DNA from: Ypsolopha sequella
Lineage: Eukaryota > Arthropoda > Insecta > Lepidoptera > Ypsolophidae
Reading direction: 5' to 3'
Assembly: GCA_934047225.1 (NCBI GenBank)
Contig: OW204001.1
Span: 15,484,201-15,548,200, forward strand
DNA: 64,000 bases
The notes under the pieces are model-generated. The model was not told where the DNA came from and did no database searches. It saw only the letters and a list, made by a program, of their open reading frames with translations. Positions 42,774 through 63,039 of the stretch are shown here, piece after piece (the first letter of the stretch is position 1; each line of letters opens with the position of its first letter). Made by a program: the position numbers and the translations under genes.

Positions 42774-42871
42774 AATAGAAGAAAAAAAAAACGGATACAA
42801 CTATATTCCAGATAATAACTACGCGCGTACTATTTTGTAGCAGTTAGCGTTACACGTGACGTTTGTTGCAG

Positions 42872-43086
42872 CGTGAGCGAGGGCGTGGAGCGTTGCGCGT
42901 GCGCCCGGTAGCGAGAGCGCGGGTGCGGGTGCTGCTGCGGCCATGGTCGGCTAATGGAGGCGGGCTGGTGGTCACCGTCGCCGTCGGCCTCGCCGCCGCT
43001 GCCGCCGCGCGCCCCGCCACCCGCCACGCCCCGCTGTCGCTGCCGGCATCCCTTCTCCAACAGCTACACCTGCCTTCCACACTATG
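42872..43086 (+). CDS. MCT-like transporter, first coding exon (start codon 42954)
   Basis: Acceptor GTTTGTTGCAG (ends 42871), donor TATG|GTAAAC (43087). An in-frame TAG at 42909 excludes earlier coding, so ATG 42954 is the start. This gives 44 codons plus one base (phase 1). Residues 1-44 are proline- and serine-rich, beginning MEAGWWSPSPSASPPLPP and ending SYTCLPHY: a cytoplasmic N-tail without known domain. The G left over joins AC of the next exon to make Asp45. A mini-ORF (ATG GTC GGC TAA, 42943-42954) in good Kozak context overlaps the start as TAATG. The exon is strongly GC- and CpG-rich, unlike its surroundings. A longer open frame in another phase (42863-43090) is judged a composition artefact because it does not splice onward. 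Confidence 0.8.
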
Positions 43087-43296
43087 GTAAACTGCTTCCT
43101 CCTTTTTTCCCTGATGCTACTGTTTCTTAGATTGGTGGGGTTACTATGCAAAGCAGCAAATATGGCGCTTCTGAAATTATGTCTAGATGTCATTGTCTTA
43201 TTTGCAGTGAGTTTGAATCTTGAATGTGTCAAATATCGAGCACTGCTGATTAACCCAAAAAAACTCTGGACTGGTGAGCCAATGAACACTCCTATA

Positions 43297-43558
43297 CAAG
43301 GCGACTTTTTGATCATCGTCCAAATTCATACTGGTGGCTTGGTAAGTGATCAGTATCATGGATCAATAACAATTTTTGTGAAATTCGCAAATTGAAATTT
43401 CGACTCCCCATAGTGATTCACTCGGGACTGGAAGTAAATTTCTATGGGAACCCGAAATTTCATTTTACGAACTTCACAAAAATTGTTACTGATCCAAGAT
43501 ACTGATCACTTATCAAGCCTCCAGTATGAATTTGGACGATGATCAAAATGTCACCTTG
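43297..43558. mobile_element. Palindromic MITE, family G, in intron
   Basis: The arms CAAGGCGACTTTTTGATCAT and ATGATCAAAATGTCACCTTG are inverted repeats extending about 85 bp inward. TA flanks both ends. A half copy lies at 26570-26626. It sits about 210 bp after the first coding exon. Confidence 0.8.
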
Positions 43559-43899
43559 TATACATAAATTACTCAACCTGGTGTTATAGAATAACCTACA
43601 CACACTCTGGTCAGTAGCCTGGCTTCCTCAGCCCGAATTTGTCCACTGCAATGTTACAATATAATGCGCGATACGTGTACGTGTTCAGCATCTCGAATGA
43701 GAAGCCTCAATATACGAAATCAGAGAAGTGGTTCGTTCCCCACTAAGGCTATCCAGCGCTATCGACTACCTTTGTTTAGTCGACGATTTACGGAGCCCGG
43801 TGTGACTAACTCGACGCTATTATGTACGTGCTTTCTTATTTAGCCGGTTTTCGTGGAGCAAAATAAGCATTATTACCCTTATTATATTGATATTTAAAT
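43559..43899. other. Intronic stretch, nothing recognised
   Basis: No exon or matched repeat is seen. Confidence 0.5.
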
Positions 43900-44235
43900 G
43901 TATATACATATATATATTATAGATGTATTTATCAATATATTCTTGTGTATTTGTTTATGTAAGTCTATGATATCTATTAAAATTAAGTTTAATTTGGTAG
44001 GTTATTTGTATTTACACTTTATTGATTTTCATTTAATTTACTCTATCTATTACGTCTATCCCCCTATTTTTACTTTTCTAGTGACTATTTCTTCACCACC
44101 CAAAGGTTGGCTGGAAGAAATCGCTTTAAGTGATAAGTCCGCCTTTGTACAAAATTATGTTTTCAATACTCTGTTTTCTTTTATATGTCTTTTGTGTACA
44201 ATAAAGTGTCAATTCATTCATTCATTCATTCATTA
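43900..44235 (+). mobile_element. Non-LTR retroposon 3' end with (ATTC)n tail
   Basis: GGTTGGCTGGAAGAAATCGC, TTAAGTGATAAGTCCGCC and GTGTACAATAAAGTG followed by (ATTC)n (44212-44233) form a 3'UTR and tail pattern I know from lepidopteran retroposons. No coding portion is attached; the left limit is approximate. Confidence 0.6.
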
Positions 44236-44482
44236 TTTATATAATTTTGTTGTACTTCCAAGTTGATAATTGGCGTGTCTCTTAAGAATTTCCTTTTAAA
44301 TGGTAACACCACCTACAATGATCAGAAATACTTGAAAGACTGTTATACTTACACCATGGTAGAGCTCTACGTCGCAATAAGCAATCGTTCAAAGCGAATG
44401 GCCCTCTTGGTGTTTGCCGACGCTGTAACAAAATTAACCTCTTTGATCGACGAATCTAATTATCGTAATACGATTTTCTCAG

Positions 44483-44633
44483 ACGGCTGGCCAGATGGGG
44501 AGGAGGAGTCGACAGCAGGAGCGTTACGCGAGCGCGAACTACGCTCGTTACACCGCACCGTGCCTGCGTTACGCCGCCGCGAGTTGGATACGCGTGCCAT
44601 CAAGCACCACTTCTATCCTGAAGGAGGATGGGG
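44483..44633 (+). CDS. MCT-like transporter, second coding exon
   Basis: Acceptor ATTTTCTCAG (ends 44482), donor GGG|GTAACT (44634). The 151 bases complete Asp45 and encode residues 46-94 plus two bases of Gly95 (phase 2). The sequence is acidic then arginine-rich (DGWPDGEEES, LRERELRSLHR, LRRRELDTRAIKHH), followed by FYPEGGWG. Residues 91-96 (EGGWGW once joined to the next exon) match the [D/E]G[G/S][W/F][G/A]W signature that precedes transmembrane helix 1 in SLC16/MCT proteins. Both flanking phases fit their partners, which is the strongest support for this exon. Upstream codons of the same open frame (44263-44482) are intron. Confidence 0.88.
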
Positions 44634-45947
44634 GTAACTTTAACGTTAATTTACACCATATTACAAGGAATATTAAGGGTCGGTTGCACCTTACATGCTC
44701 TCGCGTTTGGACAATTTAGCTTATTAAAACAAAATATTTTAACGAATAAAATTCGTGTAAATAGTTAGGAAGTTGAACTTCATTTAAATTTTTCAAATTG
44801 GACACAAGTAGTAAAATCTGTTATTTTTTGTAATATTTCTTTACTTGTACTTGTTTTGGTTGGCTTAATAGAATTTCATGGTAAGGAAATTTTTTGGTGT
44901 TGCTTATCGGGGAAGAAATTCTGTTTATTGGATTATGCACTTATTATATCCAAATTTTTTACAGGTTTTATTTATTTATTTATTTGATAACTAAAAAGAC
45001 ATACATATTTTACAATAATAAGGTGTATCAGAAACCTGTAAGGGTTTTTACGTACACCGTCATACCCGTCTTATGCAAGAATATAGAAAATTAGATGTAC
45101 AGGTAGTCTAAATAAATATTACATACAGATAATTAATGCGTGGTTATAATACCTTGTTATTACATAACTTGAATCTTAACAAAGTGGTCTAAGTTCAGAA
45201 TTAAAGTTTTCTAACTCCAAGAATAACTAACTTGATTAAACAGATTGAACTCACCTACTTGATATGCATAGTCAAAAGCAACTAACAAGTACTCGAAACT
45301 TGGCGTTACCCCGAAATTCAATTGATCCTGGACATTGGTACTTGGTTAATGTATTCCTTAACAAGGATATTCTAATTTTCTGTCAGAAACTTTGTGTTAT
45401 TCTACTGAAGGTTTGTTATCTTATTGATAAAATAACCCTGTTTACCTTACAAAATTTTTGCAATACATTAAATTTACATTTACAATTAAAATGTATACAT
45501 TAAAATTATTTTATATATCAGTTTGTATCAGTAGCGAGCCACAATTTGGACTTTAGCGATAATGAGAAAAATAATTCGACGTATTCCTTTAAAGGAGTGG
45601 TACTAGGGATTATTTCCAAAAAATAATGCCTATCAACTAGGGGTCGAAAATGATAATATTTTTTCAAGTTAAACACGTCGATATTTAAAAAATTACAAAA
45701 TAAAAAAGGTTTTCTTTCCACTTAAGACCTTTTAATTCTGAGAATATGGGAATTCAGGGCATGTATTTTATTTATAAATGATCACACATATATCAATGAT
45801 CAGAAATATAATAAACCTTCGTAACTCGGAGACCATTAATTTTCGACACCTAGGACTTAATTCGTTGGAAATGATCTCTAGTATAGCCCGTTTCAAGGAA
45901 TAGGTCGAATTACCACGCACTCTGGATATAATAATAATACAAATTCA
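44634..45947. other. Intronic stretch, little recognised
   Basis: A TTTATTTATTTATTTATTTG run at about 44967 could be the antisense tail of a retroposon oriented minus. No exon is seen. Confidence 0.45.
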
Positions 45948-46115
45948 TATTGCTGCACCTGTAACACGATCGATGACGCGCGATTTCGTTTGTGACGCGT
46001 TTTATCGCGCACATCGACCAAAATAAGCGCTTAGATAGGTCGAATGGTCGATAACGCGCGATAAAACGCGTGAAAAACGTAGTCGCGCGTCATCGTGTTA
46101 CGAGTGAAGCAATAT
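45948..46115. mobile_element. CpG-rich palindromic element
   Basis: ATATTGCTGCACCTGTAACA (45948 on) and GTTACGAGTGAAGCAATAT (to 46115) form the outer arms. The inner arms are ACGCGTTTTATCGCGC (45997 on) and GCGCGATAAAACGCGT. Arms total about 70 bp around a short centre. CpG is far denser than in the AT-rich intron around it. No ORF. Confidence 0.75.
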
Positions 46116-46370
46116 ATATCTTATTATATATTTGGTCACTTGGCGCACACTATGGACCCGGACTCAACAGACAGCACTGACAGACTCGACCAACTGACAT
46201 AATCAGCAAGTACTCCCCTCCAAACTGTTTCTTTTTTTGTTTTACCACCTTTCTTTCATCTTTTTTTTTTTTTAATATAAATAGTTCCTATAAATAATAA
46301 ATATAAATGGTTTTCAGACTGTATCAACTTGTTTTCATATATATTTTTTATCATTTTTACCTGTCAACCA

Positions 46371-46414
46371 CTCGACTGATGACGGCCTCACTGATGAGGC
46401 CGAAATATATCGAA
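46371..46414 (+). ncRNA. Hammerhead-like RNA motif, copy 3 (best preserved)
   Basis: CTCGA (46371-46375), CTGATGA (46376-46382), one extra C, a perfect GGCCTCA/TGAGGCC stem with CTGA loop (46384-46401), GAAA (46402-46405), TATA, then TCGAA (46410-46414). The outer strands pair over four bases. This follows the hammerhead order stem I, CUGANGA, stem II, GAAA, minimal stem III, stem I, except for the extra C before stem II. Activity is unproven. Confidence 0.45.
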
Positions 46415-46549
46415 AATATAAAGTTTATTATTTTTTTATTATTATCATATAATTGTTAAAACTACAAATAAAAAGGGTGAAGCAATATAAACTTGCTACG
46501 GGGGCTGGATCGATTAAATGTGTAACTATGAAAATTCAATAGTAACGAA

Positions 46550-46705
46550 GCCTCGGTTCCTATCCGTCTGCCCACTGTGGAACAGGAAATAAAATAGGGC
46601 GCCAGACGAAGTGGTGAGTATAAATAATAAATTCCAAAAAAGTCATTGCTTGGCCGACAGGATTCGAACCCGGGTCTCCTACCAACTGATTCACCGCTGC
46701 TATAA
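46550..46705 (-). mobile_element. tRNA-derived SINE-like copy, different family
   Basis: Minus-strand reading shows an A-box-like GCGGTGAATCAGTTGGTA (46697 down to 46680) and a B-box GGTTCGAATCC (46670 down). A non-tRNA body GGCCAAGCAATGAC follows. The anticodon arm is missing, so it is not a functional tRNA. The body differs from the SINE at 6620. Confidence 0.6.
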
Positions 46706-47692
46706 AAACCTAGTAGTTGATAATACAGATAAATATGCTTAATTCATTTGATAATGTGCTAATAGCTTAATAAACGTAATTCCCAACATGGTTATAAATG
46801 TACGGACGCCAGCATGACAGGCTAATTGCAGTTCTTATGACGGCGTCATAGCTTTTAAAATCGGTTACAAATAGGGAGCTTGAAATACAGGCGTCTCGTC
46901 TATACAAGCCACAGGTGCAATACCGATCAATTACCTGAAAATCTGTTATCAGGGTTGAAATCTTTATTTGTGCAAATTGGACCGTCCAATGCAGTAAATT
47001 TTATAATAAGCCTACGAGCTTATAGCTTATTTCAATGTTGTAGTAGCTTGGCAGACTAATTACAATTTAAAATTATTGCTTGCAAGCCTTGGCGCAAATT
47101 TTGAGTGGAGTCGGTACAACTTCTACAGTCTTTTGCTAGCGGCTCTGCTCGCATTTAGTAAAATCTCGGCCTTCAACTACGATAGCTATTTACTAGTTTA
47201 CATTTTTGGGTCCATAGAACTTCCCCGAATAGTCTAAACTGAGATAAAACCACAGATTTTTTCAAATAATTAAAAATATATTGTATTAAAATATATTATG
47301 TTATTTAAAAAATATATATATTTAGAGTTAATAAGTGTATTTGTTTTCGATGTGGCATCAAAATAAATGCATTTTCTCTCTTTCGCCTGGTATACCCTGG
47401 ATAGTTAGACCAAGGTCCAACTAAGGTGGTTGGCTAAAACCGTGGCTTGTCATTTCACCAACCTTGTACTCGCGACTCGTCGATGACATGAGAAGTCACA
47501 CCGGAAATGTGGATACAGGCAGTTTTATGTTTTATATTTATTTATTCGGAAAACTAACAGCACTTCAAATAACATATAAACTTAAAAGTATTATTTGAAG
47601 AAGACCAATTACAAGTGTCCACTTTTAGTTTTAGATTACGTGTACTTAAACATAGTACGTTTGTTTATTTGTTAGTATTAAAACAATAAAAG
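46706..47692. other. Intronic stretch, nothing recognised
   Basis: No exon or matched repeat is seen. Confidence 0.5.
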
Positions 47693-47786
47693 AATTATTA
47701 TTCGATATATTTCGACCCTCGGTATGGGGCCGTCATCAGTCGAATGCGGCCCCATACCGAGGGTCGAAATATATCGAATAATAATT
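47693..47786. repeat. Perfect 40-bp inverted repeat containing hammerhead-like motif
   Basis: The left arm 47693-47732 and right arm 47747-47786 are exact complements, with a 14-base loop holding TCATCAG. On the minus strand, ATTCGA (47745-47740), CTGATGA (47739-47733), C, GGCCCC...GAGGGTC and GAAATATA lead to TCGAAT at about 47706-47701, the same order as at 46371. The outer strands ATTCGA/TCGAAT pair perfectly. Confidence 0.85.
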
Positions 47787-47849
47787 TTGTATGCTGCCAT
47801 CGCAAAGTTTTCATTGGTTTCTGTAAATTGGGGGAAGTATCATGCAGTT

Positions 47850-47965
47850 TCAACTTGATATCTTATACGGGGGCTGAGCAAAAGGGTCGTGACAGACAGA
47901 CAGACGAACAACAAAGTGATCCTATAGGGGTTCCGCTTTTTCATTTTGTGGCACGGAACCCTAAA
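47850..47965 (-). repeat. Family K fragment
   Basis: GACAGACAGACAGACG followed by TTTTGTGGCACGGAACCCTA is the reverse orientation of the K family end (AGGGTTCCG then GTCT repeats) seen at 29648 and 59770. Confidence 0.6.
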
Positions 47966-48635
47966 GAAGAATTATTTAATTAAATCTCAGGAAGAACTCA
48001 TTTTTATTGAAAAAATGCTTCCATTTTTTACGACTCACGCTGCTAACCGTGTCTACGCTATTCACGTACCAAAGTTATGTACGTGATTGATTGTATAACC
48101 TGTTACATAAATTTTAATATTTTAAACGGAGGCAGCCTATTACCACCCTGAAGGTAAATGACTAACGATGTTTCAAAACCTACCCACACGCTTTCCTGAA
48201 TAAACCGCCAAATTTTCCATATTTTCCGGCTCTTCGTAATTGCCGTAAATTCCCTTACGCTCAAAGCGGCAAAATAAAATCTTTTCTGTGACATAAAACG
48301 TCATAAACATAACTAAAGGTCTGTTTACACACAACGTATGAGGACGAACTCCGCTGACGTGTTTTCGTTGGCAAACAGTCGCGGTTTCGCATTTCAGTCA
48401 CGAATCGCACGCACGTACGCCTCACATGCAAACCGCGAAGTTACGAGGCTGTATATATACGAGGTCTGAGACCACCGAAATATTAAGTGAGATTCTGCTG
48501 TCTGAATTTGAAACTAGGAAAAACTTGCTTAATTGCGTATTTTAGAATTCCGTCTGAACATTTTTTGATGGTAACAATATTCATGTTAGGTATCGGAAAC
48601 TTGTATACTTGAGCATTTTATATAACGTTTAACGG
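47966..48635. other. Intronic stretch, nothing recognised
   Basis: No exon or matched repeat is seen. Confidence 0.5.
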
Positions 48636-49169
48636 CTACAAGGATCTTTTGGCGCGTAGACGACAGTGACAGGGGGGCGCAGCTGTAAAACAAGGAATAG
48701 GATAGCAGCGTTAATTTTGATCACAACCGATCCATGTGTTTATGGAAACTCATTCAGTGTCTAATAAGTCCAACTATGGAATGCTCTTCTACATAGTATT
48801 CGAGACTCTCTAACTATCGGTTTCTTTAAGAAAAAGCTTAAAGAATACTACCTCTCACAATCTCAACAGATAATATTTTATAGGTTGTATTTATAGTAAA
48901 TATTGATACAAATTTTCATTTTGTTATTAAACTTGTATAATTCTTTGTATGTTCTTCTTCTCTGTGTACACGTGTATGATTACTTGGTTGCTTTTTCCTA
49001 TAGTGAGGGTTTTGCTGTCAGAAATCTCTGTTTAGATAAGTGAGATAAGCTCACCAATGTGCATTTTTTTTCACTGTAATTTTGTTAATGTTTATATTTC
49101 CGTGTGTGTACAATAAAGAATACAGAAAGAATAAAGAATCCATACGCCAAAAGAGCCTTGTCGCATTGT
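48636..49169. mobile_element. MITE family L copy 2, split by an insertion
   Basis: The left part (CTACAAGGATCTTTTGGCGC to about 48735) and the right part (ACGCCAAAAGAGCCTTGTCG from 49144) together match the 144-bp copy at 37455. The 400 bp between them are a retrotransposon 3' end. Confidence 0.8.
48736..49137 (+). pseudogene. CR1/Jockey-like ORF2 C-terminus and 3' end, nested
   Basis: From about 48777 the plus strand reads WNALLHSIRDSLTIGFFKKK, then LKEYYLSQSQQIIFYRLYL and stop at 48896, the usual final stretch of CR1/Jockey ORF2 proteins. A 240-bp 3'UTR ends ACAATAAAGAATACAGAAAG with AATAAAGAAT repeated. ATCCAT borders the insert on both sides (48730-48735, 49138-49143), a 6-bp target duplication inside the L MITE. 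Confidence 0.75.
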
Positions 49170-49288
49170 ATGTATCATTTACGTCGATGAGACCCCTACA
49201 TTGCGTATGACGAACAGACTGACAGACTTGTTTTTATCTTGCTATCTATCGTGCAAGTAAACAACATTTTGTCATCGTCACAATAAAA

Positions 49289-49858
49289 ACATGCCAAGTG
49301 CGAGTCAGACTCGCGTACCTAGGGTTCCGTATTGTGGATGATAAATTTAATTTTGTAATTTTTTTCGTGAATTTTTCATATGTTTTATTTATCCTGTAAT
49401 CCTTACGTAGACACATATTACCATGATTTTTTTCATATTTATTAGTCCACCAGTTTTGGAGATAAGGGGGGGGGGGGGGGAGGGGGATACACAAGTTTTT
49501 ATGGTTTTTCAAGGATTTCTCGAAATATATGCCATATTAGTATAGCTAAACTAAATATTTTTACAATTAGCTTTTTACTATAGATATCTCTATAATTTGA
49601 TATCCATATTGTATTTTTAGGACAATGTTTTTTATTTTTCTCACTTTTGTTTTGAAAATATTTTGAACAATTAAAAATTCTTCATAATTTTTTTTACACA
49701 GTGATATGTGGGCATTTTAATGCTATTTTTGTGCCAAATTTCATTTCTTTATCTTTAACGATGCTAAAGTTATGAGGCTGTGACATACGGACGGACGGAC
49801 GGACAACAGAGTCTCACCATAAAGGTTCCTTTTGTACCTTTTAGGTACGGAACCCTAA
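49289..49858. repeat. Dispersed repeat, family J copy 2
   Basis: GCGAGTCAGACTCGCGTACC, then TAGGGTTCCGTATTGTGGAT, and at the right ATACGGACGGACGGACGGAC and AGGTACGGAACCCTA. It matches copy 1 at 68-840 in order and orientation but is about 200 bp shorter in the left half. A G run lies at 49468. Confidence 0.75.
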
Positions 49859-49923
49859 AACCCTTAATCTAATGTCAACATTTATTTATCATTATCAACC
49901 ACAAATTATGATACAATTTTTCA

Positions 49924-49990
49924 GGCTTTTGTTTAAGGCTAAGTGCTGCCAAAACTTGTTTTTTCATTGCAAGACAGTACGTAAATAAAT
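49924..49990. mobile_element. MITE family N, partial copy 3
   Basis: AAGTGCTGCCAAAACTTG and TTTTTCATTGCAAGACAGTA match the left half of the copy at 5220. Confidence 0.5.
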
Positions 49991-50137
49991 ACAATAAGAA
50001 TAACCTTACAAATATAAGACAAAAATTTAAAGGCTTATTAAAAATAAGCTACAGGGTCTACTTAATATTCACCTAATAGTCTTAACGGTACGCTAAAAAA
50101 GCTGCAAATGGTGTTAAGACTGATGTACATAAACAAC

Positions 50138-50205
50138 GATCGTCAGACTTTCGAGGATTCGTTTGAATAAATTCGGACTTTTCTTGTGTTGAAAATATAC
50201 ATTTG
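50138..50205. repeat. Family F partial copy
   Basis: CAGACTTTCGAGGATTCG and TTTGAATAAATTCGGAC match the end of the F copy at 30990, in the same orientation. Confidence 0.55.
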
Positions 50206-50301
50206 CTATGTGCATAAGTTTGGCCGTATTGCACATTATTTGATGAGTCACCGACCTTTTCAACAGAACCTGTCTGTCTAATCTTAAACAGTCTTTAAGT
50301 A

Positions 50302-50420
50302 ACAAAACGGTATTTAACTTTAGACAATGTTTAAATCTGTTGCTGTCACCTTTTCTTTCATATTGTAAAAGAGTGACAGCAACAGATTTAAACACTGTCT
50401 AAAGTTAAATACCGTTTTGT
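50302..50420. repeat. 48-bp hairpin repeat, one mismatch
   Basis: The left arm 50302-50349 (ACAAAACGGTATTTAACTTT...) and right arm 50373-50420 (...AAAGTTAAATACCGTTTTGT) are complementary over 48 bases with one mismatch, around a 23-base loop. No terminal features of a known transposon were found. Confidence 0.85.
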
Positions 50421-51744
50421 AGTAACACAGTGCGTGTTTTGTGTTGTGTTCTGTTGAATAAAATCTTTTTATTTGTTTATTTATTTATTTGTAATAATAA
50501 TAATAAATTATTTCTAGATAAGATTATCTCTTACGCTGACATTACAATTTTGAATAGTTAAATGATAATGAACGTTACGAAAATTATGAAATATGACAAA
50601 CAAAAGAATGACACTGACATTTTTTGTATGCCATAGTCACACATAAGTGACAAATAGAACTTTCAATCAATAACTTACCTTGCGATCCCAGTAGCTTTAC
50701 CTGGGTTATGGTTCCCGCAGAGCTTTCAAATTATACCCTTCGCCACCTTCCGACAGATGTGCAAAGCCCTTTAGGTCACAGATAAATAGTCTGACAAGGA
50801 AACCTTCGCTTAGACACGACGGTAAGATTACCTTTGAAAGTGAGATATTACGCATGCTATCACTTTGCTAAACAATGGTACAGGAAGCAACCCCTTTTCT
50901 ACTACCTTTATGAAAAAATTCCATTTAATACTCGAAATTAGTTTTGAAAATCGAACTTTCCGGGCCCCGTTGCGGAATGACTATCAGGTTAGTTTGAAAT
51001 ATCGTACTGAAATTTCATTTATTGCAAAATTAGGTTCTTTTTGACGTTTGTCTTAATTTCATGTTAAATTTGGTTCTTTTTGACGTCCGCGTCCTTAGTT
51101 CGTCTTTACAATCGAAATTCCCTGCGTTCCGATTCACGACATAATCGATTATATCGCGTCTGACACTCTTTTTTCGCAAAATGATACTGGCCACAAATAA
51201 AAGCCGCCGGCCGAAGCCTGAAAAAAAAAGGTGAAAACCGCGCCACGCTTTGCAAAGTCATAAAATACATTAAATTTGAAAGGAAAAATTAAATATTTAA
51301 ATACATAAATCAGGTAGTAGAAAAAGTATCGTTCGCAACGATTAAAAATGGGTTTTCTTACCCTCGGAATGTAAGCTTTCAAAGTACGCCTTCGGCTCAC
51401 GTCGAAACTAGCTTCATTCCTCGGGTTAGAAAATCTCCCATTTTATACTCGTCACGAAATATACTATTTTAAAATCGGTCAATGACCTTTGAGTATTTTG
51501 TACTGGTCCCCGTATCACGAAACGCAGTAATGTGCGTCAAAGATTGTATGGCGAGATTGACGTACCATCGAAGAAATTGCCGCAGACCCACTTTTCGCTC
51601 TTATCACCATGCAATACGGGCTAAAAGTGGGCCAGCGTATTTTTCCCTGATAGTACATATCATTTTCTTTTGACACGTACAGTTTTTCCAGCTGCTCTAG
51701 AAACAGACTAGATTTTTGAAGTAGTGTTGTAGTTTCTGTTTCTT
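50421..51744. other. Intronic stretch, nothing recognised
   Basis: The short open frame at 51149-51400 (minus) has no recognisable motif. No repeat match is seen. Confidence 0.45.
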
Positions 51745-52100
51745 TGTTTGTTCTTTATTCTTTATTGTACACACTCATTGAAACATGCATACATATTATA
51801 TTTAATTTGAAACAATATGCACTTTGGCATGCTTATCTCTGAGAAGAGATTTCTTCCAGCAAAACCAAGAGGAGATAACAAACAAGTGTTTTTTTTTTAC
51901 ATAGAGTAATAATACAAGTGCACAAAGAGATGGATACAAACTAAAAATAAAAATAGCAACAATCCATCCATCAGCCCGTATTCGTCCACTGCTGGACATA
52001 GGCCTCTCCAATATTACGCCACTCTTGGCGGTCCTCAGTCATCCTCATCCAGCCGCCACCCGCAACGTACTTCAGATCGTCAGTCCAGCGGGCACGCATT
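51745..52100 (-). pseudogene. Non-LTR retrotransposon ORF2 tail and 3' end
   Basis: Minus strand: 52100-51963 encodes the WTDDLKYVAGGGWMRMTEDR-type tail, almost identical to the fragment at 5859. A 3'UTR follows, with GCTGGAAGAAATCTCTTC and GTGTACAATAAAGAATAAAG at about 51755. Coding end, 3'UTR and tail are collinear, so this is one 5'-truncated insertion. Confidence 0.72.
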
Positions 52101-53631
52101 ACAACAATATAGTAATAAAATACTAACTATAAATACACATGATAAAAATAATATATTATACATATCATAAATATTAATACATCTAAAATTGTATTTACCT
52201 ATACAGACAGTGAAAGGTAATGTTTTTCAGCTTTTTCTTAAGGGCCCGTTATTCCCGACATTGAGCACCTCATTTTGCATCAAGTGGAACTGATCTTATA
52301 TTATATTTCTTATATTATATTTCTTATATTATATTTTTCAATGCATGTGCTCGTAAAGGCCCACTTTTTATGCATCAAAACCGAACAGAAATTCGATTAT
52401 TTTGCTCTAGGGCTTTATTTTTATTATTTTTTTAAATTTGTTTACAATGGTTGGCTAACCTGCAGCCTTTCATTGACGTTATACTTTTTTTTCCACTGTT
52501 TAACGGCTCTGGATACAGTTCTTTTGAACCAATTATAATTTAAAATTCACAAGATTATATTTGTTTTCATTTCCTCGCACTATGCATTGAAAAATGTAGT
52601 ATGATACACGGGCGTAAAAGCAATAAATTACTCGGTTACGTTTAAAACGTTACGTCCTCGTAACTTATTCCTTTGCGCCCTTGTAGCATAAACTACTATT
52701 AAAGTAGCACGCTCTGCTACGACAACCGAAACATCGCGCGCTCTTAAAAACACGTTTTTTACTCATAAAACGTTTTTATGATGAAATTTTCAGAAAATTA
52801 TCCGCAAAAGAACTTATTTAATTATATTTTCCTTCATTTCATATAATTTTCCTACGATTTTATAATGTCAATTTTAAATAAAACGAAAAAAACACGAAAA
52901 GTTTACCAAGTTTCGGTTTTTTTTTCGATCGAGCAAAGTATAACGTATCGAGTTTTGAACCACAAACAAATCAGCAAAAATAATGAATCTCAGATACAAA
53001 ATTTTTTCAGATACAAAATATCACAATTGCATGATTTAAAATGAATCAGAAAAGAGACAAAAATTGGGACAAGCCCCCCTTACCCCCTTAAAGGAAAAGA
53101 TAGTACGTGATTCGCGAATGCTATGCGGAAGAGCACAGTCTGATTGATACAACATTGAAAGAGTTGCCATAAGCACCATTTGTTGTATTCTGACTGGATT
53201 TCTAGTTGCTGAAAATCAATCCAGTATGGAGAACAAAGGAGTTTTTGTTCTCGGCCGGAAGCTACGAAAGTGACGCAGTGTGTTCATATTAATTCAGTAT
53301 GATCAGTAGAACATGTAGTTTAAGTTCTGTAGAAAATCACTGACACACTATCAAGAATAGTTTGCTTATTTTCTCATAAATGCACGATAAATATTTACCA
53401 CATTCCAGATAACATCTAAATGTCCCTTAGGTCACAAATAAATCATCTGACAACAAGACGCTGGATTTCCCTCGCGTCTGACTGTCGTGACGTGACGTGA
53501 CATGATGAGATCAACGTGCGTTATCACTCGCGTCATCGCGTTTGGCGGCAGCTTTACTTTTCAAAAATATATGATAAAATGAATGTTTCGAAATTAATTT
53601 TTACTTTTATTTTATATATCTGTATTGTATA
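52101..53631. other. Intronic stretch, nothing coding recognised
   Basis: A 14-bp unit (CTTATATTATATTT) is repeated three times at 52295-52336. No exon is seen. Confidence 0.5.
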
Positions 53632-55366
53632 TACAGGTGGTCACATAATTAAAGATACCTCCTAATTGACCGCAAAAAACTTAGTTATGGTACTACCATT
53701 TGCTTAAATAGGTAATTAATCCAGAGTAATTGGTATTAAACCATATGTGACATTGTATTCTTAAAATGTGGGACAAAAAAATAGATGTGTTCGTTAGTAG
53801 TTTAGCCACTGCGCACTCTGGGAAAGTAACACAAACTTTTTTAACTTACTTGTAGCTGGCCAGCTAATTAAAGACAATAAAAGCTGTGTTCTGAATTTAA
53901 AAATAAGAAAAAAAGAACTAAATTCTTTTTTTCTTTGTTTTGCCGCGTATTTTCATGAATTGTCAATATTACTGAAAAAGTTTAACTTTTTTCATTATTA
54001 AAATTAATACGTTTTAAACCAATCAATATGGGAAAAAACAAGAGTTGCGATTCGACCACTAGGAAGATTATTTTGAACTTTCGAACCAAAGGCTGGTCGT
54101 ACAGAAAAATAGGAAACCACTTGAACTGTTCTAAGGACATGGTTATGAATACTATAAAACATACCAAGAAGTTTAACACGACCGAAAATGTACCTAGAAA
54201 ACCGAGACCAAGGAAAACTACTGTGCGGGAAGGCTCTAAGATGGTGTTGTGGGCAAAAAAGATCCGTTCAAGGGATCAGAACTGATACGTTCGGTGTTGT
54301 TTGGTGCAGGAGGGTCGAAGGATGTGTCTGCAAGAACAATTAGACGGAGACTATGTGAGGCAAACTTGTACGGAAGAGTGTCTCGAAAGGTACCACTTTT
54401 GAAAAAGCAAAATTTTAAGGCAAGATAAGCGTTTGCCAAAAAGTATCAACACTGGACTGAACGAGAGTGGAAACAAGTGCTCTTTTCTGATGAAACAAAA
54501 ATTAATATGATTAATTCTGATGGAAAACAATATGTTAGACGCCCCCCAAACAAAGAAATGGATCCAAAAGTCGAAATATCAAAGTGTGGTGCTGCTTTTC
54601 AGGACTTGGTGTAGTACCTGTCAGGAAAATAGAAGGCAACATGGATAAATTCCAGTACAAGAATATTTTAGAACAAGCCATGCTGCCCTACGCCGAGCAA
54701 AATTTACCGGTCATTTGGACTTTTCAACAGGATAATGATCCGAAACACACTGCAAAAATAGTAAAAGACTTCTTAAGGAACCAGTCCGTGACAGTTTTGG
54801 ATTGCCCCGTACAGCCCGGATTTAAATCCCATAGAAAATTTGTGGTACCAGGTGAAGAAGACAGTGGCGACAAAGCGGACATCGAACGTCGATCAACTTT
54901 ACACAGCCTTTACAGAAGCATGGGAGCAAATTCCGGTAGGAGCTTGTACAAAATTGATCGCTTCCATGCCCAAGAGATGTCGTGCTGTAATTTCTGCCAA
55001 AGGACATGCGACCAAATATTGATACGTACCGGAATGTTTTATAAATTTGTTGGGAATTTTGTGTAATAAAGATAATTTCAATAACAACAATATTTTTTTT
55101 ATTTCTTCTAAGCAAATGGAGTGTCTTTAATTATATGGCCATATCTTTGTTAAGTTTATACTGCTTGCAATTAGGATAAACCGAATAAAAGATTAGGAAC
55201 AGACAAATTTTGTTGATAATATTTCGTTTTAACACTACACAATACCTACACAAATATTTTTAAATTGTGTAGCAAGTTCCAATGGTAGTCTGATAAAAAA
55301 TAAAGAGGAATAGCTTAGTTATTTTGATATGCTTTAAGTGTCTGTAATTATGTGACCTCCACTGTA
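53632..55366 (+). mobile_element. Tc1-like DNA transposon, full length but dead
   Basis: The element 53634-55364 (1731 bp) starts CAGGTGGTCACATAATTAAA and ends TGTAATTATGTGACCTCCACTG, inverted terminal repeats with a few mismatches. TA lies on both sides. Inner repeats of the same type (CAGCTAATTAAAGACA at 53862 and GTGTCTTTAATTATATGG at 55122) give a double-TIR layout. It carries a broken Tc1 transposase on the plus strand, the same orientation as the host gene. Confidence 0.9.
54028..55022 (+). pseudogene. Tc1 transposase, multiply disrupted
   Basis: The start is MGKNKSCDSTTRKIILNFRT, with a paired-like helix-turn-helix (TKGWSYRKIGNHLNCS). Frame 1 ends near 54285. Frame 0 carries SARTIRRRLCEANLYGR, a TAA at about 54426 and FSDETKINM (first D near 54489). 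Near 54590 the reading moves to frame 2 with WTFQQDNDPKHTAKIVKDFL (second D). Near 54810 it returns to frame 0 with DLNPIENLWYQVKK (catalytic E) and ends at 55022. The D-to-E distance fits DD34E. With three shifts and one stop no active enzyme can be made. Confidence 0.9.
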
Positions 55367-55386
55367 TGTGTCGGTTCGGCGTAATT

Positions 55387-55480
55387 TGACAGGACTAACC
55401 TTATTTTAAGCATCCTGTCTTTTTCTTTCTTTATCGAAAAGACAAGGACAGAAAGCTTAAATTAAGTTTAGTCCTGTTAA
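55387..55480. repeat. Short hairpin repeat
   Basis: TGACAGGACTAACCTTATTT / AAATTAAGTTTAGTCCTGTT, with inner CATCCTGTCTTTTTC / GACAAGGACAGAAAG, are inverted arms of about 40 bp. Located 20 bp beyond the Tc1 element. Confidence 0.65.
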
Positions 55481-55669
55481 ATAAGTTAATTATGTGCTAC
55501 ATGCACTGACTCGACACCATCATCTGTATTGTTACTGAAGTATACACAAATGTGCTGAACTTTTGATGTAAGTTATAAAATAATAGCAGCTTTGTAAGAA
55601 AGAGAAAGATTTAGAAATATCTATTGTTAAAGAGGAATTGGGCGTAGCTTACTTAATCTCAAACTCTGT

Positions 55670-55990
55670 CACAGAATACCAGCTAAAGTGATCAGAAACA
55701 AAACAAAAGTAATCGATGCAGTAGAGGATGAAATGGAAATGGGCAGGTCACATTGCAAGAATGACTGAGGTCAACAGATGAACAAAAATCCTGACCAGCT
55801 GGAAACCGCAGATTGGCAAAAGAAAAAGAGGAAGGCAGAGAAGACGCTGGGAAGACGACATTGTGTTGACCGCTGGTAAAGACTGGATAAATGTCGCTCT
55901 AGACAGAGAAAGTTGGAAGGAACTAGGAAACATTTACCTGCAAAACAAAACAAAAATCGATGAGGATGGCCAAGGTCATATGGACCTCTA
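55670..55990 (+). pseudogene. Non-LTR retrotransposon ORF2 C-terminus
   Basis: Plus-strand codons give KVIRNKTKVIDAVE, then in a second frame MKWKWAGHIARMTEVNR, a TGA where W would be expected (about 55779), then TSWKPQIGKRKRGRQRRRWE, DDIVLTAGKDWINVALDRES, WKELGNIYLQ and a stop at 55991. This is the RNase H-less tail of endonuclease-RT proteins (WAGHIARM and GRQRRRWEDDI are typical). One frameshift near 55731 and one stop. No 5' part is present. Confidence 0.78.
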
Positions 55991-57141
55991 GTTTATGCTT
56001 TATAATGTATTTTGTGCTATACTCAGTAATTTCTATACTATTATTTTTTGTATAATTATTATTATTACTTTGTACATGTTAATAGTACTAAGTATTTAAC
56101 ATGTTTTAGTGTAAAAATTGGTTAAACCTGTTAAACTAGAATAAATTGGCTAATAAATAAAAATAAAAGTTGCAATGGGTTCCTAGTTTTTGTGTATGGG
56201 CACAGAATAAAGATTTTCTGACCTTCCAAAATATCTGCCTTTCCTGTTTGTTTGAGTAGAGAGTTCAAATATTGATACAAATATTTGGGAGCTTACTTTA
56301 TTCAACAAATCAAATACATAACAAAAAATAATAAAATTAATACCTAAAATTAAAAGTAAATAATCGTATATATTGAACATTTAAACATAAGACCTAAAAA
56401 TAAATATATTAAACTAAATAAAAAATTCTACCAAGGTCGCTTTGTTTGTTGTTTGATAGTACCTAGCGGGCTGGCAGCGTTACCCCGTTGTATGGCCAGA
56501 CTGATTTGGGAGCTTATAATTTTGGTCTCAATAATATCCTCTGGCACGAAATCTTTCAAGAATTTCCAATAAAGTCTTGGTAATTTAGGATAAAGGTAAT
56601 ATAAATGCAGATCTCTTTTGTTTTTACGTTTTTGCTGAAAAACAGGATATCACGCACAAAGGAAAATAAAATATATGAAATTTTTGGAATTTACGCTTTT
56701 TTAAGAATAAAGTTTGCGAATGCTTTGGTAGATTTTAAAGGCAATTTGTTAAAAACCCAGCAGCAAATATTTGTAGAAGTTTCTTACCCGGGTCCGTAAA
56801 TATTTTGGCAAATATTTGCCAAAAATTATGTATTTTAGGTATGTAGGTAGGTTTTAACATATGAAATTGCCGAAATTTTCTTACAGATTCATGAGTTTGT
56901 AATTCCTGTAATTCAAAAGCTATTTCCATTATTTTTTTTTATTTGAAAGTTCATATCAAGATTTTACATCTACGTATAAAATTTTGTTTTTATTATCAGT
57001 TTGATAAACAAACTTAAATCTTCAAAATAATAGATAATATTTTTTACTTAGTGTAACAAAAAAACCTACCATTAAATGTATTATTTTTACGTTAGAAAGG
57101 CAGCTTCTGCAATCTTTGTTAAAGCTAACAATATTTTCCAG
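55991..57141. other. Intronic stretch, nothing recognised
   Basis: AT-rich. A TAATTATTATTATTACTTTG run at about 56053 and the acceptor tract of the next exon at the end are the only features. Confidence 0.5.
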
Positions 57142-57260
57142 GTGGATTGTCTGTGGGGCGGCGTTTTTGGCGCACCTTCTGTCGACGGGACTGCAGCTAG
57201 CGTACGGGGCTCTACACGTCTACGCGTTAAGGCATCTCGGACCCACCGCCAACCATGCTG
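57142..57260 (+). CDS. MCT-like transporter, third coding exon (transmembrane helix 1)
   Basis: Acceptor AACAATATTTTCCAG (ends 57141), donor GCTG|GTATGA (57261). The first base completes Gly95; 39 codons follow, then one base (phase 1). Residues 96-119 (WIVCGAAFLAHLLSTGLQLA and on) form a hydrophobic helix right after the EGGWG motif, as expected for helix 1 of an MFS-type SLC16 transporter. The rest (YGALHVYALRHLGPTANHA) is the loop before helix 2. MCTs carry monocarboxylates with protons across the plasma membrane; the substrate here cannot be told. Codons are GC-rich against an AT-rich intron. The next exon is not in the window. Confidence 0.88.
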
Positions 57261-57298
57261 GTATGAACCGTTCTAGGCCCTCTTGCAGCATGTTCTGA

Positions 57299-57724
57299 AA
57301 AAGTTTTAGCGTCCCTGCTGTTTCTCCATATGCGAAAAAACCCTCAGCGCGAGTGGGACGGTTTCGTGGAAAAGTAGCAAAAAGTCGCTTTTTTATTAAT
57401 ATAAAATGGACTAAAGTTGCTATCAAAATTTCGTTTAACCTAGATACCGTTAAAACCCATCTAATAAAATATAGCTGCAGTCTATATGCCATTCTAAATT
57501 GTCAAACCAGGAGAATTGGTGTCGAAAAGGACTTCAATTCAATACATATTTCTATCAAGCCGAATTTCTCCAATCGCGTTTCTGTTTTAACAGATCCCAA
57601 GAAAAATAATCCAAAAATAATATACTATTCATATACTTATCAAAATAATACTATATTTACTGAAGTAGATATGCAAGTCCTTAAAGTGTCGTTTTTTTTC
57701 TCGTAGCGCCTTAAGGCGATATTT
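57299..57724 (+). repeat. Dispersed repeat, family I copy 3
   Basis: AAGTTTTAGCGTCCCTGCTG, CCATATGCGAAAAAACCCTC, GCGAGTGGGACGGTTTCGTG and the closing GCGCCTTAAGGCGATA are repeated directly in copy 4 starting 57728. It has a 117-codon open frame (57353-57706) with no known domain. Confidence 0.7.
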
Positions 57725-58135
57725 AAAAGTTTTAGCGTCCCTGTTACTCCATATGCGAAAAAACCCTCAGTGCGAGTGGGACGGTTTCGTGGAAAAGTAG
57801 CATAAAAACGCTTTTTTATTAATATAAAATGTACTAAGCTATTTTGTCAAAAATATTTTCAAGGAGACTTTTCAAACACATAACATCCACATTTTTAATG
57901 CAATTTCACAATGAAATTAGTTAGGATTTCAGAATTACAGGAAAAAATAAAACAATTTAGAAGTCTTTTCAGAATTAAATTCTATCGAGAAAATTCCATC
58001 CAATCGCGTTTTCCTTCAGTGAGAATCTTAATCAAATACTCAATAAACATTTACCCAAAAATGAAATACGTAGATGATGTTATAGCAGAGTAAATGGATT
58101 CGAAAAAAAAAACCTTTTTTTTGGTATCGCCTTAA
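57725..58135 (+). repeat. Dispersed repeat, family I copy 4 (tandem with copy 3)
   Basis: Begins AAAAGTTTTAGCGTCCCTGT and shares CCATATGCGAAAAAACCCTC and GAGTGGGACGGTTTCGTGGA with copy 3, then diverges. It ends near GGTATCGCCTTAAG (58121), and the same GGTATCGCCTTAA occurs again at 58185. Confidence 0.7.
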
Positions 58136-58344
58136 GAATATTGACTTAAAAATTAAACTGAACAGCTTATGAAAATTGACATTTGGTATCGCCTTAACTC
58201 GACTTTATCTAGAGTTGAGGGTTAAGAAAAAGCTCTCTTACACCAATCAAAATCTCGGATTAAACTTGGGTTAAACTAAGAGAAAGTCATCAGAATATAA
58301 CCCGACTCTCACCTCAAGTTAAACTCTGGTTAGCGAAGTAATGT

Positions 58345-58720
58345 TAACATCCATCCATCCATCAGCCTAGTTCGTCCACTGCTGGACATAAGCCTTTTCA
58401 GGACTTTGCCACTGCCGGTGGTCATTCTGGAAGAATTGCCCATATTCACACACGCTGGGCAGGCGGGTTTGTGAGCGCGGTGCCGGAACCCTCGCACCAG
58501 TGACGCCACTGCCCGTCACCAGTCTGTTCCATATAAGGCCCGACTATTAGGAATGGATATACCGCCATCCATCGGTCCCAGGCATGGTGGGCCTTCTGGT
58601 TTTTTGCCTGTAAGCTGTCCTCTTACTCTCCCCCGAATTACTCCGAGGGGGTCTCCAAGCAAGATGGTGGTACCTCCAGATGGTGGTCGAGCCCGGCATC
58701 AGCTCTACCACCTTTTAATC
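58345..58720 (-). pseudogene. Retrotransposon-derived fragments
   Basis: CATCCATCAGCC, GTCCACTGCTGGACATAAGC at 58350-58400 resemble the start of the fragments at 5859 and 51963. The following GC-rich sequence to 58720 differs and contains GGAATGGATATACCGCCATC. I cannot assign it further. Confidence 0.4.
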
Positions 58721-58721
58721 T

Positions 58722-59395
58722 TCAAAATATCACGTTCACGGACGTGTTTCGTGGAAAGATTTGAGAACTATCTTGGTCGGTTTCTCTATAACCTAGTAAA
58801 TAACCTTCACGCTATCTACTCTCTAAATGCGTATGAAGTTAAAAATAAACTAATACCCTGGCTTAAGTCCCTAAGTTATGAGGAAACAGAGAATCTTCTT
58901 GTCTCTCGTTTTAAATGCTAAATGTAAATTTACTTGTTGTTTAATATTTTTCATCAAATTTTTGACACACTCACCCACACATTCACAAACACACCCTCAT
59001 ACACACTCCCTCCCTAGTAGTAAATATACGGATCCCAAGACCTTGGTCGTAGGGCTGGGGAAACACATACACTAACATACACCCTCTTCCTACACACACA
59101 CTCTCATTCTCATCCACACTCTTCACACAGACCCACCCTCTCATATGCCCTTGATTTTTTGTATTTTTTGTTTTTATTATAAGTAAGCTGCATGCTCTGT
59201 TGTATTTTTTTTGTATTCTCGTTTATTTTATATTACTTCTAATTTTTAATGTAATACTCTGTAAGGGAAGAGCTTGGCGCCTATAGCACCGGTACATACA
59301 CCCTTGTAGGCGTCAAGGTAATCCTATTCTGTTATTGTGTAATTTTTAGATGAATAAAATCATATTCTATTCTATTCTATTCATGTTTGACTTTA
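58722..59395 (+). pseudogene. CR1-like retrotransposon ORF2 end and 3'UTR with (ATTCT)n tail
   Basis: The plus strand encodes RTCFVERFENYLGRFLYNLV, then NNLHAIYSLNAYEVKNKLIP and WLKSLSYEETENLLVSRF, stopping at 58921. The last 60 codons match the end of the minus-strand element at 63516 in style. The 3'UTR is rich in CACACA, contains GGGAAGAGCTTGGCGCC and ends GATGAATAAAATC with (ATTCT)n (59373-59391). 5'-truncated. Confidence 0.78.
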
Positions 59396-59769
59396 ATTGT
59401 GTTGTTTCCAATGACATCATAAAGATACTATACCTCATTGGTTGCAACTAATTACTTTATAGTATCATTCAAAATAAATATCAAATGTTAAACAATCGCT
59501 TAGCTCGGGTTTACTACCCCGCTTCGATATTATCATGGTGTAATAGGACTAATGAAATGTTAGTTAACTCTTCCCTTGGGTTAGTTAACCCGAGGGTTAA
59601 GGATTTTTTCTCGATCATGCTGCAAGTGGACCTAAGACGTTGCCCTAAAAAAAATGCAGTTGCCTGATTAATTTTAATCTATAACGCAGACTCAAATAAA
59701 ATTCGTCATGCCGTTACACAATGAACAAGAAAAAATAAGATCTAACGAGTATTTATGTCATTTACGTCA
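59396..59769. other. Intronic stretch, nothing recognised
   Basis: GTTAGTTAACCCGAGGGTTA near 59580 is a local palindromic word. No exon is seen. Confidence 0.5.
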
Positions 59770-60180
59770 TGTTTAGGGTTCCGTAGTCAACAACAAGGAA
59801 CCCTTATAGTTTCGCCGTGTCCGTCTGTCTGTCTGTCTGTCCGCGCTGTAATTTGGCATGGGTATACATATTTATCACGCCGATAAAGTGGTAAAGTAAA
59901 ATTTTGAAAAAGATTTTTTTTAGGTTACCTCCCGTACACGTAAAGTGGGGATGATTTATTTTTTTCTCGTCTATCCCCTAGAGTGGGGTGTTGTTGGATA
60001 GGTAATTTAAAAATATTGGGAGTATGAGAACACCATTTTTCGATCCAGGGTTTTGTTTGCAAAATATTAAGCTTATAAGTGTTAATTTTTGTTAGAGTCA
60101 AGTGTCCCCCTCCCTGCCAGCGAAACGGTGGTATGAGACGTGAAAAAATATATATAGCTTCACAGCCGTTCTCGGCCACA
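59770..60180 (+). repeat. Dispersed repeat, family K copy 4
   Basis: Starts TTAGGGTTCCGTAGTCAACA, followed by GGAACCCTTATAGTTTCGCC, (GTCT)n, GCTGTAATTTGGCATGGG and GTAAAGTGGGGATGATTTAT. This is the 5' half of a repeat I know from many lepidopteran loci. It ends abruptly beside the retrotransposon fragment at 60202. Confidence 0.65.
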
Positions 60181-60201
60181 GCGACAGCTTCTTAACTCCT
60201 G

Positions 60202-60492
60202 TCAAGTTTGAGAGCTAAGCTGTCCAGCTCTCTGATGTGCTCTCAAGTGACTCGCGTAACCAATTTTTGCATTAAATGTACGCCCACATAGGGCGCACGT
60301 CAGCACACCATTCATGAAATTGTAAGCGATGTTCGCAGGTGGCCGAGACTTAAGGTCGTCCCTTTTTCGGTCTAAATCGGACCTTCGTTCTTGTTCAAAG
60401 TCATAAACTTTCCTTTGAACAAGGTTCCGCCACTCTGCGCGTTGAGCTGCCTTATCCTCCCACTGCGATGGCTCAATGTTGCATCTTTTTAA
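60202..60492 (-). pseudogene. Non-LTR retrotransposon ORF2 C-terminus with C2H2 finger
   Basis: Minus-strand codons give LKRCNIEPSQWEDKAAQRAE, WRNLVQRKVYDFEQERRSDL and LKSRPPANIAYNF, then a C2H2 finger CALCGRTFNAKIGYASHLRAH, cut here at its last residues, and a stop at 60202. The remaining frame is intact. The same tail, more damaged, is at 21815-22190. The open frame continues upstream to 60546 (a hydrophobic stretch), which I take to be chance extension into flanking DNA. A host zinc-finger gene is unlikely. Confidence 0.72.
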
Positions 60493-60546
60493 TGAAAAAA
60501 ATCCCGACAGTAGCATACATAACGAAATTAAAAGCAAAACTATCAC

Positions 60547-62093: not shown

Positions 62094-63038
62094 ATTAATA
62101 ATTTACTGTTTGTTCAATGTGGCGATAGCTTTGTTTATTATTTTTTTTCTTTGTTACAAAGATAACAAATATTTTCATACAAGGTTTTCCTTAAGGGCTA
62201 TTTCTCCGAATTTGTAACAAAATATTAAGAAATAATTATAACGGTAAAGTACAACTTTTAGCTAAGACAATTTATTGTTAAAAGTTTGCTAAATGCATAA
62301 ACATATTTTAATGATATTATGGTATCTTCAAAATAATTGGGTTTTCCATAAGCGTGATATCAGATTATTTTAGAAATTTACGGCTGGTATCACGAAGACG
62401 GATAAGCCAATTATTTTATTACTATTGTAATTTCATTAAAAATATGTTAATGCATACAACAGACTTTTAACTATAAGTTTTCTTAACTAAAAGTTGTAGT
62501 TTTACTTATTGAAATTGTATTTCTCATCAAGAAGTGTAAGATGACAAGATATTCAAAATAAGTTAATTGAATTTGTGAAATGGTTTCAGGTCAAAACAGT
62601 TTTCCATGAAACGGTAATTGTTTATACTTAGCAAAGTGTGTAAACTTAGTCATCTTAACATGAACGACTCCTGTATTTCTCTCTTTTTTATTTCCAGTAT
62701 AGATAAAAATATACAAACTTGTTAAACTTTGTGTAAAAACGAGGCAATATTGACGATATCCTGACAGCTATTATGATGGTGTTTTATCAAATTTTGCTTT
62801 TTGGGCTGTAAAGAGACGTAGTTAGATGTCACTAGAATATACTCATGAAAAAAGATATGAAGAAAATAAGCTGTAGACTGCACATTCGGTTTATACCTAT
62901 TGTATGAATTTTAAGAAAATACAGGGGTAAAGGGACCTCTTAAGGAAAACCTTGTATTAAACTATTTGTTACCTTAGTAAAAAATATATCAAGGAAAAAA
63001 ATAAACAAAGCTATCGCTACATTGAACAGTAGATAATT
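62094..63038. repeat. Inverted repeat pair, about 100-bp arms
   Basis: CAATGTGGCGATAGCTTTGT (62116 on) and ACAAGGTTTTCCTTAAG (62181 on) reappear inverted at 62938-63038 (CTTAAGGAAAACCTTGT, AAAGCTATCGCTACATTG). The 740 bp between arms include another palindromic element. This may be a TIR element or two opposed copies of one repeat. Confidence 0.6.
62245..62507. mobile_element. Palindromic MITE inside the inverted repeat
   Basis: TACAACTTTTAGCTAAGACA (62250 on) with AAACATATTTTAATG and the right arm CATTAAAAATATGTTAATGC with TTCTTAACTAAAAGTTGTAG are inverted repeats of about 100 bp. Related ATAATTGG / CCAATTAT words lie near the centre. Confidence 0.6.
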
Positions 63039-63039
63039 A

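What the first reader, a model, noticed from the sequence alone, without database searches (positions are those of the whole stretch)
42872..57260. A monocarboxylate-transporter gene hidden in three tiny coding exons across 14 kb
Three GC-rich segments have correct AG and GT borders, and their phases fit exactly (1|2, 2|1). The joined reading gives EGGWGW at residues 91-96 followed by a hydrophobic helix, which is the SLC16/MCT helix-1 signature. None of the three looks like a gene alone. The 12.5-kb intron cuts the codon of the glycine inside the signature.
Basis: partly seen in the sequence, partly recalled or inferred. Interest (0 to 1): 0.75.

Follow-up and report, generated by a model that had tools for sequence, protein, structure and literature searches.

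The report
Ordinary moth transporter gene, first exons
The three small segments are the first coding exons of a membrane transporter gene of the monocarboxylate-transporter family that moths and butterflies share and that is already annotated in relatives, so the reading is right but the gene is ordinary.

Summary
Joining 42954-43086, 44483-44633 and 57142-57260 gives one open frame of 134 residues with EGGWGW at 91-96. It is the N-terminus and first helix of an SLC16/MCT protein known from moths and butterflies: the 20 closest full-length relatives are 83-96% identical over 67-100% of it. Junction 2 falls exactly between matched residues in 35 of 35 proteins with both hits, junction 1 in 16 of 19. 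Helices 2-12 were not found in the window. The left edge 42872 is not a splice border; coding starts at ATG 42954.

Two refinements. The name "MCT4-like" is probably misleading: the group keeps the signature, but four residues used for H+/lactate transport in MCT1/2 are absent from the 30 rows I aligned (29 for helix 8). The 12.5-kb intron in the signature's glycine codon looks lepidopteran (inferred). A three-codon uORF overlapping the start codon is noted. No RNA evidence was available and the window's own genome could not be searched. Interest is low.

The parts
42870..42953 (+). GC-rich 5' leader of exon 1 (true 5' end unknown); frame +3 stretch SVSEGVERCACAR also occurs in a Spodoptera littoralis gene model, so part of the leader seems conserved
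   Evidence: 92% identity over 13 residues with P0037 (E 0.014); GC 0.738 against 0.356 for the window
42943..42954 (+). 3-codon upstream ORF MVG* (start context GCGGCCATGG); its stop overlaps the main ATG (TAATG)
   Evidence: shown by the sequence; any function is inferred
42954..43086 (+). coding exon 1: MEAGWWSPSPSASPPLPPRAPPP...CLPHY, proline-rich N-terminus; ends in phase 1
   Evidence: matched at E < 1e-3 by 19 of 36 relatives (P0019-P0037), 66-86% identity in 18 of them; the 19th (P0037, 62%) matches in frame +2
43087..44482 (+). intron 1 (1,396 bp), with an inverted repeat of two 130-nt arms at 43293-43562
44483..44633 (+). coding exon 2: DGWPDGEEE...LHRTVPALRRRELDTRAIKHHFYPEGGWG; enters in phase 1, leaves in phase 2 inside the Gly codon of EGGWGW
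   Evidence: 36 of 36 relatives match; 88-100% identity in 19 of the 20 P0019-P0038 (68% in P0037, whose match also takes in intron sequence)
44634..57141 (+). intron 2 (12,508 bp), GC 0.34; holds an ORF at 54539-55066 that reads like a transposase piece (by eye, no Pfam hit)
57142..57260 (+). coding exon 3: end of the signature and helix 1 (GWIVCGAAFLAHLLSTGLQLAYGALHVYALRHLGPTANHA); leaves in phase 1
   Evidence: 35 of 36 relatives counted (the 36th, P0044, also matches, E 8e-10); 90-97% identity in P0019-P0038; exactly adjacent to exon 2 in 35 of 35
57261..64000 (+). start of intron 3 (at least 6.7 kb); no exon for helices 2-12 found
   Evidence: no match downstream of exon 3 better than E 0.15 for any of the 36 relatives

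Best explanation
The segments are coding exons 1-3 of a plus-strand SLC16/MCT-family gene of a moth or butterfly, the counterpart of proteins annotated there as 'monocarboxylate transporter 4-like' and similar, and related to Drosophila CG10019. They encode a proline-rich N-terminus, the SLC16 signature and helix 1; the other helices should be encoded beyond position 64000. Shown here: the reading, the junctions by homology, and family membership. Inferred: the full protein works by alternating access like other MCTs, with the signature helping subunit contacts or trafficking as in MCT1/2. Inferred with about 65% confidence: it is not a proton-linked lactate carrier, because the residues equivalent to MCT2 Tyr34, Lys38, Asp293 and Arg297 are all replaced; it more likely moves another small organic solute facilitatively, as reported for MCT7 (and, from recall, MCT8 and MCT10).
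For:: 36 relatives at E 6e-77 to 1e-24; 18 of the first 20 (P0019-P0038) carry lepidopteran names (16 species), and 12 of those 18 records visibly bear an MCT name; residue-exact adjacency at E2/E3 in 35 of 35 and at E1/E2 in 16 of 19; reversed controls no better than E 0.037; a Choristoneura fumiferana gene model (P0002) joins exon 1 to exon 2 and ends at EGGWG; P0017 and P0018 are exon-3 readings. PDB relatives of the window residues are MCT2, MCT10, MCT8; the full-length relative P0028 matches MCT2 at 1.3e-25 and all 12 listed sequences are MCT1, 2, 8 or 10. P0028 MFS_1 68.3 bits (cut-off 33.4). [DE]GGWGW in 30 of 30 rows; Tyr34 and Lys38 equivalents 0 of 30; helix-8 Asp and Arg 0 of 29 each. 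Roles of these residues: PMC9982067, PMC8980330, PMC7228944 (passages).
Against: The 134 residues alone have no Pfam hit, and their PDB matches are weak (MCT2 E 0.0025-0.0056, MCT10 0.013-0.1, MCT8 0.15-0.19), ranking below a designed kelch protein. No transcript evidence. Exons 4 onward were not seen. Orthology was not tested with a tree. On the substrate: the helix-8 residues are read from relatives, not from this copy; a Lys38-to-Met MCT1 still carries lactic acid at acidic pH, and an Asn at the Arg313 site occurs naturally in MCT12, a creatine carrier, so loss of single residues does not abolish transport in general.
Confidence: 0.96

Rival explanations
1. A decayed or truncated copy: three conserved exons survive but the gene no longer makes a full transporter.
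For: Exons 4 onward were not found in the window, and introns 2 and 3 are long.
Against: All three exons are open with intact GT/AG borders and 66-100% identical to lepidopteran relatives in the same frame; decay would be expected to break the frame. Other lepidopteran genomic readings leave homology at the same places.
Confidence: 0.03
2. Chance: GC-rich segments with fitting borders that imitate an MCT helix 1.
For: 4,392 open AG..GT segments of similar size exist on the + strand of the window, so borders and phase alone could be chance.
Against: tblastn E down to 1e-20 (exon 1), 3e-28 (exon 2) and 1e-19 (exon 3), collinear on one strand, with residue-exact junctions; reversed controls 0.037 at best. 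Filters for low complexity were off, which flatters exon 1 only.
Confidence: 0.005
3. The gene is a classical proton-linked lactate/pyruvate carrier, as its automatic names (MCT4-like, MCT2-like) suggest.
For: Names given by sources; MCT2 is the best PDB match of the full-length relative; MCT1 K38M still works at acidic pH.
Against: Equivalents of Tyr34 and Lys38 absent in 30 of 30 aligned rows, of Asp293 and Arg297 in 29 of 29. Papers report the three charged residues as conserved in MCT1-4, MCT1 D309N and R313N as non-functional, and MCT2 Y34F and Lys38 mutants as lacking active transport.
Confidence: 0.25

Closest known systems
Lepidopteran 'monocarboxylate transporter 4-like' proteins (Mythimna separata, Bombyx mandarina, Choristoneura fumiferana, Amyelois transitella, Plutella xylostella, Danaus plexippus and others; P0019-P0038)
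   Same: Same N-terminus and junctions, 83-96% identity over 67-100% of the 134 residues
   Different: Small substitutions and a few extra residues in exon 1; the rest of this copy is outside the window. No listed record is identical to it
Arthropod group reached from the Lutzomyia relative, with Drosophila busckii CG10019
   Same: SLHRxVPALRRRxxDTxxIRxxYYPxGGWGW block and MFS_1
   Different: About 50-68% identity for the non-lepidopteran rows; contig readings suggest no intron inside GGWG|W outside Lepidoptera (inferred)
Human MCT10 and MCT8
   Same: PEGGWGW (MCT10) or PEGGFGW (MCT8), then a helix with GxQ/HxxxG and no lysine at the Lys38 position
   Different: Full-length E-values weaker than for MCT2; substrate relation not tested
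Human MCT1/MCT2, proton-linked lactate carriers
   Same: Signature; E 1.3e-25 (MCT2) and 7e-16 (MCT1) for the full-length relative
   Different: Four residues used in H+/lactate transport are not conserved

Membership tests
SLC16/MCT family | N-terminal signature [D/E]G[G/S][W/F][G/A]W leading into TM1 (PMC11176948, passages) | tested here: met
   EGGWGW at residues 91-96 of the joined window reading; [DE]GGWGW in 30 of 30 aligned rows
SLC16/MCT family | Second signature (MCT2: begins at Tyr138, YFYRKRPMANGLAMAG; PMC7228944, passage) | tested here: inconclusive
   Not in the window. The 29 relatives keep YF, a basic run and a later G, but the middle differs (YFRRRRQFVELVAHAG in P0028)
SLC16/MCT family | Major facilitator fold with 12 helices | tested here: inconclusive
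   Only helix 1 is in the window; the relative P0028 passes the Pfam MFS_1 cut-off; no structure was predicted
SLC16/MCT family | Sequence similarity to solved MCTs | tested here: met
   Window residues match MCT2 and MCT10 weakly (E 0.0025-0.014); the full-length relative matches MCT2 at 1.3e-25
Proton-linked lactate carriers MCT1-4 | Lys38, Asp309, Arg313 (MCT1 numbering; PMC8980330, passage) | tested here: not met
   The Lys38 site is Leu in the window; 0 of 30 rows have Lys; helix-8 Asp and Arg 0 of 29 each, helix 8 not being in the window
Proton-linked lactate carriers MCT1-4 | Proton-coupled lactate/pyruvate transport | not testable with these tools
   Needs a transport assay
Lepidopteran orthologue group | Collinear three-exon N-terminus with the same junctions | tested here: met
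   E2/E3 adjacent in 35 of 35, E1/E2 in 16 of 19; the other three overlap by one residue (P0030, P0035) or match exon 1 in another frame (P0037). No tree was made

The most novel reading that the evidence does not exclude
The whole arthropod group to which this gene belongs is misnamed: it is not a proton-linked lactate carrier but an orphan SLC16 carrier with a different substrate and coupling. In Lepidoptera its most conserved motif has gained an intron in a glycine codon, and its translation is gated by a three-codon upstream ORF whose stop overlaps the main start codon.
Probability: 0.3. Interest if true: 0.4.

Novelty: new member of a known kind. Interest (0 to 1): 0.13.

Why it matters
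Mostly a gene-annotation result: short first exons spread over 14 kb are easily missed, and some database models seem to get exon 1 wrong (P0037 reads part of it in another frame; P0002 carries a repeated leader stretch). The modest scientific point is that an arthropod SLC16 group often named MCT2-like or MCT4-like lacks, in the 29 relatives aligned, the residues that make MCT1-4 proton/lactate carriers, so its substrate should be measured rather than assumed.

Tried and rejected
Pfam on the 134 residues: no family. Search for helices 2-12 in the window: recalled motif patterns and tblastn with 36 relatives gave nothing convincing; a recurrent weak match at 36602-36847 (E 0.2-4) is taken as chance. 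Prokaryote genome contigs (41 pattern matches) and viral contigs (1) gave no confirmed relative, as expected for an insect gene. The PDB match to the designed kelch protein SAKe6 was set aside because none of its stretches passes on its own.

Papers. Listings only: (31 papers, 20 listed). CG10019 gave 19 listings; two were opened, passages only (PMC8658011, PMC4423967), and those passages assign no substrate. The other 17 were not opened; judging by titles most are chemistry papers where the string is probably an article code. Monocarboxylate transporter + Lepidoptera + intron gave 7 listings, none about this gene by title. PMC5775259 (Chaski): passages only. PMC9982067, PMC8980330, PMC11176948, PMC7228944: passages only. 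No paper was read in full.

No structure prediction and no family tree was run; 'orthologue' rests on similarity and shared junctions. One search listed 120 of 554 matches, so the spread of the group is a lower bound.

Full report
What was checked. The three segments, their borders and phases were read from the window. Exon 1 ends at 43086 before GTAAAC, exon 2 runs from 44483 (after TCAG) to 44633 (before GTAACT), exon 3 from 57142 (after CCAG) to 57260 (before GTATGA). From ATG 42954 the join is open for 134 residues, with EGGWGW at 91-96. Of nine combinations of neighbouring donor ends only this one is both open and gives the signature. The glycine codon GG|G is divided by a 12,508-bp intron.

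Borders are not evidence by themselves. The + strand of the window contains 21,539 AG..GT segments of 100-220 nt, of which 4,392 are open in some frame.

Homology settles the identity. A search with the 134 residues returned 17 short proteins, among them a Choristoneura fumiferana gene model that joins exon 1 to exon 2 and ends at EGGWG, and exon-2 and exon-3 readings of other sequences. A second search that admitted longer proteins returned 36 relatives at E 6e-77 to 1e-24. The first 20 (P0019-P0038) include 18 with lepidopteran names from 16 species, 12 of them visibly named as MCTs, and two without a name; 35 of 36 carry MFS_1. tblastn of the 36 on the window gave exon 2 in 36, exon 3 in 35 and exon 1 in 19 at E < 1e-3. 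The one exon-3 miss, P0044, does match at E 8e-10, but its alignment runs past the donor and fell outside the box I counted. The last residue of exon 2 and the first of exon 3 are neighbours in 35 of 35; for exons 1 and 2 this is so in 16 of 19, the others overlapping by one residue (P0030, P0035) or matching exon 1 in another frame (P0037). Of the 17 relatives without an exon-1 hit, four beetle proteins among the five best leftover matches show weak ones (E 0.002-0.003). Low-complexity filtering and composition correction were off, which flatters the proline-rich exon 1; the 36 reversed proteins, run the same way, reached E 0.037 at best.

What lies outside. No relative matches the window downstream of exon 3 better than E 0.15, so helices 2-12 should lie beyond 64000, and intron 3 is at least 6.7 kb. 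The window's own genome could not be searched: seven identical requests did not complete.

Family. Exons 2-3 match solved MCT2 and MCT10 weakly (E 0.0025-0.014); a profile of the 18 aligned sequences matches MCT10 best (E 0.0024). The full-length relative P0028 matches MCT2 at 1.3e-25, MCT8 at 2e-21, MCT10 at 3.6e-17 and MCT1 at 7e-16 and passes Pfam MFS_1. A search from the Lutzomyia relative listed 120 of 554 matches, including Drosophila proteins, one of them named CG10019 (D. busckii). No tree was made.

How it probably works. The signature takes part in subunit contacts in MCT2 and in chaperone-dependent trafficking of MCT1 (PMC7228944 and PMC11176948, passages). In MCT1-4 Lys38, Asp309 and Arg313 are conserved (PMC8980330, passage); MCT1 D309N and R313N were non-functional, whereas K38M worked at acidic pH (PMC9982067, passages); MCT2 Tyr34 and Lys38 mutants lost active transport (PMC7228944). 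In a MAFFT alignment of the window protein with 29 hand-chosen relatives, the Tyr34 site is Thr or Ser and the Lys38 site Leu or Phe in 30 of 30 rows; the helix-8 sites hold neither Asp nor Arg in 29 of 29 (register against MCT2). I therefore expect a carrier of another solute, probably not proton-coupled, with about 65% confidence. The helix-8 part comes from relatives, and the K38M result shows that loss of the lysine alone does not end transport.

An intron in the signature. Of the 17 proteins, four leave homology at or one residue after GGWG (P0002, P0004, P0012, P0016; two are named, Choristoneura and Eumeta), two enter it at exon 3 (P0017, P0018), and 11 run through GGWGW and lose homology only after the end of exon 3. 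Three of the 11 are annotated models that may be spliced (P0006, P0008, P0009); eight come from unnamed contigs that may be genomic or transcript. An intron gained in the lepidopteran line is the simplest reading, but the DNA was not seen.

Verdict. The finding is real and correctly interpreted, and it is ordinary: another member of an annotated group. Interest 0.13.

Noticed in passing
window 42943-42954: Three-codon upstream ORF (ATG GTC GGC TAA) in good start context whose stop overlaps the main ATG (TAATG), while the main ATG has C at -3. Protein-level readings of the leader in P0037 (Spodoptera littoralis) and P0002 (Choristoneura) are compatible with a similar uORF but do not show it.
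   Followed up: partly
window 44633|57142: The intron inside the GGWG|W glycine codon seems present in Lepidoptera and absent from other insects' readings.
   Followed up: partly
window 12910-17193: Non-LTR retrotransposon: gag-like ORF with PRE_C2HC, then an ORF with endonuclease and reverse transcriptase domains.
   Followed up: partly
window 40697-41595 (-): Broken mariner/Mos1-type transposase remains (HTH_48 and Transposase_1, both below Pfam cut-off).
   Followed up: partly
window 54539-55066: ORF inside intron 2 that reads like a Tc1-type transposase piece (by eye); no Pfam hit.
   Followed up: partly
window 43293-43562: Inverted repeat with two 130-nt arms, 88% complementary, 10 nt apart, in intron 1; looks like a MITE-type foldback.
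   Followed up: no
window 57318-57414 and 57741-57837: 97-nt direct repeat, 94% identical, 423 bp apart, just after exon 3.
   Followed up: no
P0021 (Bombyx mandarina isoform X2): Annotated isoform joins TADHAG straight to VVLGIGCG, skipping the stretch that follows exon 3 in other relatives: a predicted exon-skipping form.
   Followed up: no
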